From contig NZ_SMGG01000004.1 of NCBI RefSeq assembly GCF_004339245.1, forward strand, positions 496,001 through 560,000: a stretch of DNA of 64,000 nucleotides, read 5' to 3'. The notes beneath the pieces are model-generated. The model had not been told where the DNA came from. It saw only the letters and a program-made list of their open reading frames with translations, and ran no database searches. The stretch is from Seleniivibrio woodruffii (GTDB taxonomy: Bacteria > Chrysiogenota > Deferribacteres > Deferribacterales > Geovibrionaceae). Shown in pieces: positions 55,247 through 57,928 of the stretch. A program made the position numbers and the translations under genes. How positions within the stretch are numbered: the first letter of the stretch is position 1; each line of letters opens with the position of its first letter.

Positions 55247-55534
55247 TTATGCGCCTTCGAACATAACAACTCTATAATCCGCACCTAAGAATCTGTGGGC
55301 ACGGGCTTTTTTGTATTCATCGCTGTTATACCAGTCAAGAGCCTCCTCTTTGGTCTTAAACTCAAGAAGAACAACCCCCTTGGCTTCCGGCCCTTCCAGA
55401 GTCTCTATATCCCCGTAAAGGGCAAGCCTCTTCATGTCTCTGCCTTCGGCCGCCGCAGGAACCAGCTTTCTGTATTCCTCAATCTCGGCCTCGTCTCTGA
55501 GCCTTTCTTTGATAAATATAATGTAGTATGACAT
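55247..55534 (-). CDS. DUF1330 family protein
   Basis: 95 residues, a ferredoxin-like dimeric alpha-beta fold typical of DUF1330. It starts MSYYIIFIKERLRD and contains LYGDIETLEGPEAKGVVLLE and ALDWYNSDEYKKARAHR, the family core. Function is not established; members often sit beside oxidoreductases. ATG start, 8 bp after the SDR stop, so it is in one operon with it. Confidence 0.88.
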   Translation of the reverse strand: MSYYIIFIKERLRDEAEIEEYRKLVPAAAEGRDMKRLALYGDIETLEGPEAKGVVLLEFKTKEEALDWYNSDEYKKARAHRFLGADYRVVMFEGA

Positions 55535-55542
55535 ACTGCCTC

Positions 55543-56310
55543 CTATAATGTCTGTATGGTTCCGCCGTCAATGCGGTATTCAACCCCTGTTATCCATTTC
55601 GCACTGTCCGAAGCCAGAAACACAGCCAGCTCGGCCACATCTTCCGGACTGCCTGTTCTGCCGAGAGGAATCCCGCCGATGAAATCCACAATCTGCTGTC
55701 TGGCCTCAGATTCGGTTATGTTTTTATCTTGCGCTATCTGATTTATATATGTTCCGGCGGATTCTGTCTCTATGAAACCGGGGGATATCACATTAACCCG
55801 CAACCCGTGTCTGCCAACTTCCAGAGAAAGCGCTTTACTGTAGTTGTTCAGGGCGGCCTTTGCCGCCGCATAGGCCAGAGTGGATTCGTATATGGGTTTG
55901 TGACTCTGGATTGACGAGATATGGATTATGACCCCGCTGCCCTTTTTTATCATGTCCGGCAGCAAAGCCCTGTCCAGCCTGACTGCGCCGAAAAGATTGA
56001 ACTCGAACATCCTCTGCCATTCATCATCCGTCTGGGCGGCAAACCCTCCCATCGGAGATTTTGACCCTCCGGCATTATTCACCAGAATATCCACTGAGCC
56101 GAACTCACTCTTCACATATTCAGTTATTTTCAATGCCCCTTCCCGCTCCGAAATATCGGCAGAAACACCCTTCAGCGGAAAATCCGCAGGGATCTCTCTG
56201 GCAGTAACAGCAACAACAGCCCCAAGCTCCGCCAGACGCATAGCTATAGCCCTGCCCATGCCTTTTGTGCCTCCGGTTACGAACGCTTTTTTACCTTCAA
56301 AATTATACAT
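55543..56310 (-). CDS. short-chain dehydrogenase/reductase
   Basis: 255 residues. The nucleotide motif is TGGTKGMGRAIA (about 13-24), NNAGG lies near 78, the catalytic Ser is in ISSIQSHK and the Tyr-Lys pair in YAAAKAAL. It is in the classical 3-oxoacyl-ACP-reductase-like group, but substrate cannot be told. ATG with GGAGAG upstream. It is divergent from an HxlR regulator, which probably controls the SDR-DUF1330 pair, as HxlR regulators often do with redox enzymes. Confidence 0.92.
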   Translation of the reverse strand: MYNFEGKKAFVTGGTKGMGRAIAMRLAELGAVVAVTAREIPADFPLKGVSADISEREGALKITEYVKSEFGSVDILVNNAGGSKSPMGGFAAQTDDEWQRMFEFNLFGAVRLDRALLPDMIKKGSGVIIHISSIQSHKPIYESTLAYAAAKAALNNYSKALSLEVGRHGLRVNVISPGFIETESAGTYINQIAQDKNITESEARQQIVDFIGGIPLGRTGSPEDVAELAVFLASDSAKWITGVEYRIDGGTIQTL

Positions 56311-56383
56311 GAAAGTCTCTCCTTTAAATTGTTCACCGAGGCCTGCGGTTGATTTTTTCTAAGATACAGATTACACTGAGATT

Positions 56384-56773
56384 ATGTCAAGTACACACGA
56401 TAAAGTAGGGTACTTACCCGAAAGTAAGTATGTTAAGATAACACCCGATGCAGCGGCTACAGGTATTCAGGATGCCATCCGGATTCTGGAAGGAAGATGG
56501 AAACTGCTGATAATAATGAATCTGTTCGCATATGGAACACTAAGGTTCTCTCAGCTTGAAAAATCCATTCCGGATGTGACACAGAAAATGCTGATTCAGC
56601 AGCTGAGGGCTCTGGAAAACGACGGTATCGTCAGCAGAATAGTTTACCCGCAGGTTCCGCCGAAGGTTGAGTATTCGCTCACGGAAACAGGAAAAGAACT
56701 GTGTCCTGCACTGGATGCACTCCTGAAGTGGGCGGCACAGAGAAACCCAAAGTCGGAATACGGCCACTATTAG
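56384..56773 (+). CDS. HxlR-family transcriptional regulator
   Basis: 129 residues. The winged helix-turn-helix is ILEGRWKLLIIMNLFAYG, then FSQLEKSIPDVTQKMLIQQLRALE and SLTETGKEL. No N-terminal cysteine of the YodB redox type is present. ATG at 56384; no other in-frame start fits. A perfect 20-bp inverted repeat lies inside codons 10-16. The TAG stop is supplied by the end of the MITE-like element at 56772, so the C-terminus may have been altered by insertion. Divergent from the SDR gene. Confidence 0.9.
   Translation: MSSTHDKVGYLPESKYVKITPDAAATGIQDAIRILEGRWKLLIIMNLFAYGTLRFSQLEKSIPDVTQKMLIQQLRALENDGIVSRIVYPQVPPKVEYSLTETGKELCPALDALLKWAAQRNPKSEYGHY
56411..56430. promoter_or_regulatory. perfect inverted repeat inside the hxlR coding region
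   Basis: TACTTAC-N6-GTAAGTA (7-6-7, no mismatch), 27 bases downstream of the hxlR start. The spacing suits a winged-helix dimer, so it could be the HxlR operator. If so, it lies within the gene and would act as a roadblock or on the divergent promoter, whose start region is about 100 bp away. Confidence 0.5.
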
Positions 56774-56940
56774 AGGATTTAACGAAATATTTATCGTACA
56801 CTGCTTAATCCCATTCGAGGTATTAAGTTTGTCATGCTGAACGCAGTGAAGCATCTCAGTTTGAGCAGAGACCCTTCACTCCGTTCAGGGTGACGTTTTG
56901 CGCATACAACTAATACGTTAATAATTTCGTTAAACGCTCT
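56772..56940. mobile_element. MITE-like element with nested inverted repeats
   Basis: 169 bp without coding capacity. The ends are AGAGGATTTAACGAAAT (56772-56788) and, inverted, AGAGCGTTTAACGAAAT (56940-56924): 15 of 17 match, with a perfect 11-bp core. TA directly adjoins both ends, compatible with a TA target duplication as in IS630/mariner-type elements. Inside, GTCATGCTGAACGCAGTGAA... (56831-56857) pairs with 56868-56894 at 22 of 27 positions. A degenerate relative of the inner repeat is at 34782. Both flanking genes stop in its ends. Confidence 0.7.
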
Positions 56941-57928
56941 AGAGGATATCTTTCCGCAGGTCAAAATCTTCGTGACTCATCCACTCGCCGTTGCGCATAA
57001 CCGCAATGAAGTTGCGCCTGTCCATGAGCATCTTAAGATTGGAGAGCGAAAGCCCCAGTCCGAAACGCCCCAGCGGTTTCAGCTTATAACTCTTCTTAGC
57101 TTCCAGAAGTCGGCACAGGTACATATCCAGACTTTCGCAGACAAGCTCCGCAAAAAGCGAGGTCATCTTTTCCGAAACAATCTCCGTCAGCTTGTCGGGG
57201 ATATTGTGGTATGACTGAGGCAGAGTGAGGGTGAACCCCATCTGCTCTTTAAACTCTTTGATAGCAGAGAAATAATGCTCACTGCTGTCCTCTTCGCCTT
57301 TCATTATGATAGGCGGGAGTCCGCTGGCGATAAGAATGTAATTCGTGAGTATCCTGCCTGAACGGCCGTTTCCATCCTCAAACGGATGAACGGACTCGAA
57401 ATAGCCGTGCTGTTTTGCCAGAAATCCTATGAAATCTTTCAGGTTTATCCGTCCGGTGCGGTAGGCATCCACACGGGAATTGATGTACACCAGATATATA
57501 TCCAGCAGCTGAGGAAGTTCCGCAAAATCAGGAAGATCCCCATATTCCGGATTAGTTGCATTGTTATCCCTTCTCAGGCCGGGATAGGTCATTTCATCCA
57601 GCACCAGAAGGCCGTTCAGTTTGCGGAAGTCCTCAAAACGGAATCCGATGCTGAAATTGCTTCTGTTGGCATATGCCTGCTCATAATACGTTATCGATGC
57701 ATTATGATAGCTCTGCACCTTCGGAGCATAAGGATTTTTCACCTGCTCCTTGTGCACCAGCACCGCTTCGGCATCCCTGGCAGGGATATAAACGCCCTCA
57801 ATCATCACCGAGTTGCGGGCTTCTTCGGTCAGGATATCCGTCCACTCGGAACTGTATATGGCAGGTTTTGTCAGCCCGCCGAGTTTTTTCAGAATTTTTA
57901 TTCGTTTTTCAAGTAATACATAGAGCAT
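56939..57928 (-). CDS. Fic family protein
   Basis: 329 residues. Fic motif HPFEDGNGRSGR starts at His181, so the AMP-transferase site is complete. The N-terminal inhibitory motif S-x3-E-G is present (Ser40, Glu44, Gly45, in SVMIEG), which marks a self-inhibited class II Fic protein. A winged-helix-like C-terminal region (about 265-329) follows, but it ends at a TAG given by the MITE-like element, so a few original residues may be missing. ATG start; stand-alone gene. Targets are unknown. Confidence 0.9.
   Translation of the reverse strand: MLYVLLEKRIKILKKLGGLTKPAIYSSEWTDILTEEARNSVMIEGVYIPARDAEAVLVHKEQVKNPYAPKVQSYHNASITYYEQAYANRSNFSIGFRFEDFRKLNGLLVLDEMTYPGLRRDNNATNPEYGDLPDFAELPQLLDIYLVYINSRVDAYRTGRINLKDFIGFLAKQHGYFESVHPFEDGNGRSGRILTNYILIASGLPPIIMKGEEDSSEHYFSAIKEFKEQMGFTLTLPQSYHNIPDKLTEIVSEKMTSLFAELVCESLDMYLCRLLEAKKSYKLKPLGRFGLGLSLSNLKMLMDRRNFIAVMRNGEWMSHEDFDLRKDIL

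What the first reader, a model, noticed from the sequence alone, without database searches (positions are those of the whole stretch)
56772..56940. MITE-like element that gives both flanking convergent genes their stop codons
Seen: 17-bp terminal repeats with 15 matches, TA at both ends, and nested inner arms. The TAG stop of hxlR (56771-56773) and the TAG stop of fic (56939-56941) both fall in the element ends, since each end carries TAG when read outward to inward. Insertion of such an element into a short convergent gap would truncate or re-end both proteins. The TAG-bearing end may make these elements tolerable when they land in coding ends.
Basis: seen in the sequence. Interest (0 to 1): 0.55.

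Follow-up and report, generated by a model that had tools for sequence, protein, structure and literature searches.

The report
Mobile element sitting on stop codons
A small parasitic DNA element of a Seleniivibrio-like bacterium lands on the TA inside stop codons, sometimes on one TA shared by two facing genes, and because its own ends read TAG or TAA both genes keep a stop where they had one.

Summary
The element spans 56771-56941 (TA included at both ends) and supplies the TAG stops of hxlR and fic. It belongs to a diverse, non-autonomous family (132-282 bp over 23 two-ended copies) with 28-nt ends TAGAGCAT...CGTA, found in four of five Seleniivibrio-type genomes searched. It inserts at YTAR (16 of 23) and duplicates TA. 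In 15 of 38 independent insertions the first codon of the element is the stop of a Pfam-recognised gene; crude background is 8-13%. In 5 of 38, including this one, both ends are stops of two convergent genes. At five other sites a related species lacks the element: all 8 genes compared end at the same residue, and at two of these sites the empty locus has two convergent stops sharing a single TA. So the element does not truncate proteins there: it regenerates the stop on both strands. At hxlR/fic itself no empty relative exists; the genes are shorter than orthologues (10 and 2 residues), best explained by a local rearrangement that joined them. Repeats that supply TAG stops are known (GTAG REPs, pneumococcal BOX), so this is a new family of a known kind, with an unusually clean shared-stop insertion mechanism.

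The parts
56771..56941 (.). whole element with the duplicated TA at both ends (171 bp)
   Evidence: arms, full copy C3:1127177-1127368 at 81% and partial copies, shared ends
56771..56772 (.). left copy of the TA target; first two bases of the hxlR stop
   Evidence: sequence; TA duplication shown at sister sites
56940..56941 (.). right copy of the TA target; first two bases of the fic stop on the - strand
   Evidence: sequence
56771..56798 (+). left terminal inverted repeat
   Evidence: PWM score 31.9 (locus L178)
56914..56941 (-). right terminal inverted repeat
   Evidence: PWM score 35.7
56831..56894 (.). inner palindrome, a unit of a common dispersed repeat of this genome (27-nt arms, 10-nt loop)
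   Evidence: further matches to this part elsewhere in the genome
56384..56773 (+). hxlR, HxlR-type regulator, 129 aa, stop TAG in the element
   Evidence: PF01638 E 3.8e-34
56939..57928 (-). fic, Fic/DOC family protein, 329 aa, stop TAG in the element
   Evidence: PF02661 E 2.1e-09
55543..56310 (-). short-chain dehydrogenase, divergent partner of hxlR, kept next to hxlR in G001 and G004
   Evidence: Pfam; neighbours
55247..55534 (-). DUF1330 gene, directly downstream of fic in G001, G003, G004 but separated from it here by hxlR and the dehydrogenase

Best explanation
The feature is one copy of a non-autonomous transposable element (MITE) family of Seleniivibrio-type bacteria. A transposase acting in trans cuts at YTAR and duplicates the central TA (shown: TA once in the relative, at both ends in the carrier; the transposase itself is inferred). 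The element proper begins GAGC (or AAGT/AAGC), so each end restores TA+G or TA+A. If the target TA is the TA of a TAA or TAG stop, the gene keeps a stop codon and loses no residue (shown). If two convergent genes overlap by 4 nt so that their stops share one TA, one insertion separates them and gives each its own stop (shown at two sites; inferred for hxlR/fic). Copies survive mainly between convergent genes and in stop codons because that is where insertion harms neither a protein nor a promoter (inferred). hxlR and fic were brought together by a G000-specific rearrangement, and the element then landed in the TA shared by their stops (inferred).
For: Family. Stop coincidence in 15 of 38 events with Pfam-supported genes; background 94/1136 TA sites (8.3%) or 28/222 YTAR sites (12.6%), binomial P 1.4e-7 and 2.8e-5. 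Dual stops in 5 of 38 (cbiJ/124-aa gene, DUF2023/TP_methylase, NlpC-P60/Mem_trans, AFG1/HTH-cupin, hxlR/fic) against 3 shared-stop sites among 355 background YTAR sites. Empty sites: glyA (SHMT) and cbiJ in G003, DUF2023 in G000, NlpC/P60 and GGDEF in G003. Target YTAR 16 of 23 against 20% background, P 5e-7. 22 of 38 events lie between convergent genes.
Against: No autonomous partner was found: no DDE_3 in G000, no DDE_Tnp_1 in G000-G006. At hxlR/fic there is no empty relative, and both proteins are shorter than orthologues. The histidine-kinase site (L176) is not clean: relatives end 1-2 residues later. Ends are very diverse in the subterminal part and many second ends are degenerate, so the 38 events include weak members. 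Gene calls for the background are crude. At one site (L174) a gene reads 17 nt into the element, so not every insertion is silent.
Confidence: 0.85

Rival explanations
1. The element truncated both proteins: it inserted inside longer hxlR and fic genes and its TAG ends re-ended them.
For: HxlR orthologues of G001 and G004 run 10 residues further and Fic orthologues of G001, G003, G004 2 residues further.
Against: With one TA and no element, the site still has in-frame stops for both genes (read from the flanks). At five comparable sites 8 of 8 genes are unchanged. Gene order differs in the relatives, so they are not the pre-insertion state.
Confidence: 0.12
2. Stop codons are an active target: the transposase, or the state of DNA at translation and transcription ends, steers insertion to stop codons and convergent junctions beyond the YTAR preference.
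For: Stop coincidence exceeds the YTAR background (15/38 v 12.6%) and shared stops are about 15-fold over-represented (5/38 v 3/355).
Against: Selection against insertions in promoters and coding regions predicts the same: among background YTAR sites at gene 3' ends (39 stop or shared, 17 convergent intergenic) most are stop codons anyway.
Confidence: 0.2
3. Not a transposon but a host-maintained 3'-end hairpin (bidirectional terminator or mRNA-stabilising structure) that carries stop codons.
For: Strong foldback (z -6.0); 22 of 38 events between convergent genes.
Against: Sites differ between closely related species with a clean TA duplication. No terminator-like site was found in 56700-57000. 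Gene pairs keep their ends with or without it.
Confidence: 0.07

Closest known systems
GTAG-tagged REPs (PMC3733652, passages read)
   Same: Small palindromic repeats mostly at gene 3' ends, often between convergent genes; the paper says their termini often provide the TAG stop to flanking ORFs.
   Different: 20-40 bp, GTAG tag, tied to RAYT tyrosine transposases; here 132-282 bp with 28-nt inverted ends, TA duplication and YTAR target.
BOX, RUP and SPRITE repeats of Streptococcus pneumoniae (PMC3049150, passages read)
   Same: BOX encodes the stop codon of 36 genes without strong evidence of truncation; RUP, SPRITE and IS elements are over-represented between convergent genes.
   Different: No report in the passages read of insertion into one TA shared by two stops; sequences not compared here.
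RUP / IS630-Spn1 and Correia-type MITEs (PMC2229807, passages read)
   Same: Short, non-autonomous, terminal inverted repeats ending in TA, insertion at TA.
   Different: Ends differ (recalled, not compared here); no IS630-type transposase (DDE_3) in this genome.
QMITE2 of Coxiella burnetii (PMC5896051, passages read)
   Same: MITE at the 3' end of a gene affecting the stop codon.
   Different: There an in-frame insertion extends the protein by 33 residues; here the stop is kept at the same residue.

Membership tests
MITE (non-autonomous class II element) | short, no transposase gene, terminal inverted repeats | tested here: met
   132-282 bp over 23 two-ended copies, 28-nt ends; no long ORF inside the window copy
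MITE (non-autonomous class II element) | several copies at unrelated sites in one genome | tested here: met
MITE (non-autonomous class II element) | target duplication shown by empty sites | tested here: met
   TA, three clean sites: glyA, cbiJ, NlpC/P60
MITE (non-autonomous class II element) | autonomous partner with the same ends (helps to name the parent; orphan MITEs exist) | tested here: inconclusive
   none found: no DDE_3 in G000, no DDE_Tnp_1 in G000-G006; other transposase families not searched
IS630/Tc1-mariner-derived MITE | TA target duplication | tested here: met
IS630/Tc1-mariner-derived MITE | ends shared with a DDE_3-type transposon | tested here: inconclusive
   no DDE_3 in the own genome; not searched in the sister species
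GTAG REP | 20-40 bp palindrome tagged GTAG, RAYT-linked | tested here: not met
   element is 171 bp and starts TAGAG with TA duplication; RAYT not searched

The most novel reading that the evidence does not exclude
The family is adapted to stop codons as safe harbours: a YTAR-cutting transposase plus ends that read TAG/TAA lets it hit overlapping convergent stops without cost to either protein, and its preference for such sites is partly built into the insertion reaction rather than left by selection alone.
Probability: 0.2. Interest if true: 0.65.

Novelty: new member of a known kind. Interest (0 to 1): 0.45.

Why it matters
It gives a clear, base-level account of how a mobile element can enter a compact genome without damaging a gene: the target dinucleotide lies in the stop codon and the element's ends rebuild it on both strands. 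It turns the loose remark that repeats 'often provide stop codons' into a testable rule (TA in stop, YTAR, shared stops of convergent genes) with before-and-after sites, and it warns annotators that a stop codon inside a repeat is not evidence of truncation.

Tried and rejected
Arms alone as proof: rejected, the 15/17 match is expected about once per window. Rfam: only a sub-threshold plant miRNA-type match over the inner palindrome (24.7 bits against a cut-off of 69), taken as the hairpin. Parent transposon: PF13358 in G000, PF01609 in 12 genomes (only in G007, G012, G013, G014), end pattern in genome contigs (15 loci; one, L131, is the Seleniivibrio copy, the rest were judged chance matches because the likeness to the family ends stopped after the 18-nt pattern) and in viral contigs (none). 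Not found. hxlR/fic as an element-free site in relatives: not available, because gene order differs. Published sequences of the inner repeat: five strings recalled by me, 0 papers. Print search for insertion into stop codons: (listings) and passages of PMC5896051, PMC2759123, PMC2229807, PMC3733652, PMC3049150, PMC3189936; no account of a shared-stop TA target was seen, but only open-licence papers are searchable.

Rows dropped before counts: of 43 loci L136-L178, L150 (a weak match inside a 663-aa reading frame) was dropped, and four were merged as the same site in another species (L149 with L143, L164 with L140, L173 with L158, L170 with L161), leaving 38. Of 78 same-genus rows at E<=1, those at about E<=0.12 were fetched; weaker ones were not. 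L165 (a stop at a weak end, score 7), L177 (83-aa ORF, no Pfam, negative coding score) and L157's second gene (no Pfam) were not counted as stop coincidences. The test used 39 events before the L161/L170 merge; one search repeats it with 38. One of the three background shared-stop sites is the element-free cbiJ site itself. The two-ended set of 23 includes second ends that I placed by eye, some of them weak. The orientation count (22 of 38 convergent) was made by eye from the listing.

Full report
Observation. The window element runs from 56771 to 56941. Its arms match 15 of 17 at the tips and 23 of 28 over 28 nt, it begins and ends with TA, and it holds an inner palindrome. The TAG stops of hxlR and fic are its first codons read from either side. 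Both genes are real: HxlR PF01638 and Fic PF02661. The arm match alone is no more than chance in 64 kb; copies decide.

Family. In the own genome a full copy (81% over 171 nt) and several partial copies exist; five copies, the window's included, were aligned. Ends matching TAGAGCRTTTAACGAAATWWTTAWCGTA with up to 3 mismatches occur 5 times in G000 and twice in G003, in 2 of 31 genomes, with none for the reversed control pattern. A looser pattern and a 30-position model built from 30 ends show the same ends in G004, G003, G001 and G000. With the model, rows at E<=1 were 14 (G000), 7 (G001), 1 (G002), 13 (G003), 43 (G004) and 24 in all over the eight other genomes; only 150 of about 800-2,500 candidates per genome were scored, and the model was trained on ends from four of these genomes, so the figures are rough. 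One record holding a copy is titled Seleniivibrio woodruffii, which names the genus. The core of each element is made of dispersed palindromic repeats that also occur alone.

Stop codons. 43 loci were fetched, giving 38 independent events after one drop and four merges. In 15 of 38 the first codon of the element is the stop (TAG or TAA) of a gene with a Pfam match: SHMT, FlK thioesterase, DUF2023, a cytochrome c-type protein, ThrE, DinB-type polymerase, GGDEF, CbiJ, AzlD, ABC ATPase, NlpC/P60, AFG1 ATPase, SspB, histidine kinase, HxlR/Fic. In background DNA stop-codon TAs make up 94 of 1,136 stop-or-intergenic TAs and 28 of 222 YTARs, giving P 1.4e-7 and 2.8e-5 for 15 of 38. The gene caller is a home-made codon score, so these are estimates. 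In 5 of 38 events both ends are stops of two convergent genes; 22 of 38 lie between convergent genes.

Empty sites. glyA: G003 ends AAATAC TAA and G004 has AAATAC TA[element]TA AGCC; the relatives G000-G003 all end at the same tyrosine. cbiJ and a facing 124-aa gene: in G003 the stops TAG and TAA share one TA; in G004 the element sits in that TA and both proteins end unchanged. NlpC/P60 and a facing membrane transporter: the same, with stops TAA and TAG sharing one TA in G003. DUF2023 and a tetrapyrrole methylase: in G000 the element is absent and the two stops lie 4 nt apart; in G004 both stops are element ends and the C-termini correspond. GGDEF: same last residue, TAA in G003 and TAG in G004. 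That is 8 genes of 8 at five sites; the TA duplication itself is clean at three of them (glyA, cbiJ, NlpC/P60). Of 22 G004 elements compared with seven G003 stretches, four gave both flanks; the AFG1 site carries an insertion in G000, G003 and G004, so it gives no empty state, and L162 lies away from a stop and is not clean. At the histidine-kinase site the relatives end 1-2 residues later.

The hxlR/fic site. Relatives have HxlR 10 residues longer (2 of 2) and Fic 2 residues longer (3 of 3). But in G001, G003 and G004 fic is followed directly by the DUF1330 gene, and in G001 and G004 hxlR stands beside the dehydrogenase elsewhere; in G000 the dehydrogenase-hxlR pair lies between fic and DUF1330. 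The simplest history is that the rearrangement set the new ends, producing two convergent stops sharing TTAG, and the element entered that TA. This order is inferred.

Mechanism. Target YTAR in 16 of 23 two-ended copies (background 20%), TA duplicated, element ends mostly beginning with G or A after TA. This rebuilds TAG or TAA whichever strand is read. Ends away from stop codons have often lost the TA (TGG, CAG, AAG, CGG); those serving as stops by definition have not. No transposase source was found. Whether selection alone or also the insertion reaction produces the excess at stop codons is open: among background YTAR sites at gene 3' ends most are stop codons anyway (39 stop or shared against 17 convergent intergenic).

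Known work. GTAG REPs are said to provide TAG stops to flanking ORFs (PMC3733652, passage), BOX elements encode 36 stop codons in pneumococcus and RUP/SPRITE/IS elements favour convergent junctions (PMC3049150, passages). So the phenomenon has precedents; the family, the shared-TA target and the before-and-after sites are what is added.

Noticed in passing
window 56771-56778 and 56940-56947: An exact 8-nt direct repeat TAGAGGAT lies at the left end of the element and across its right edge; the left end reads GAGG where the family has GAGC. Chance, conversion or microhomology; unexplained.
   Followed up: partly
window 55247-57928: The dehydrogenase-hxlR pair lies between fic and the DUF1330 gene, which are adjacent in three sister genomes: a G000-specific rearrangement.
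   Followed up: partly
window 56831-56894 and many loci (e.g. L006, L012, L016, L017): The inner palindrome (GTCATTCTGAACGCAGTGAAGAATCTC type, and GAGATCGCTTCG...CGTCTC type in G004) is a dispersed repeat of its own in these genomes, often without the terminal repeats; the MITEs seem to have captured it as their core.
   Followed up: partly
L143 about 2144-2290 / L149: A second, tandemly repeated unit (..GGCGGTTAGATGCAAGCAG..) follows the element in G003 and G004; similar pieces occur in G000 (L006, L017).
   Followed up: no
L174 2179-2195: At this site a DUF4143 ATPase gene reads 17 nt into the element and gains a few element-coded residues, an exception to the silent-stop rule.
   Followed up: partly
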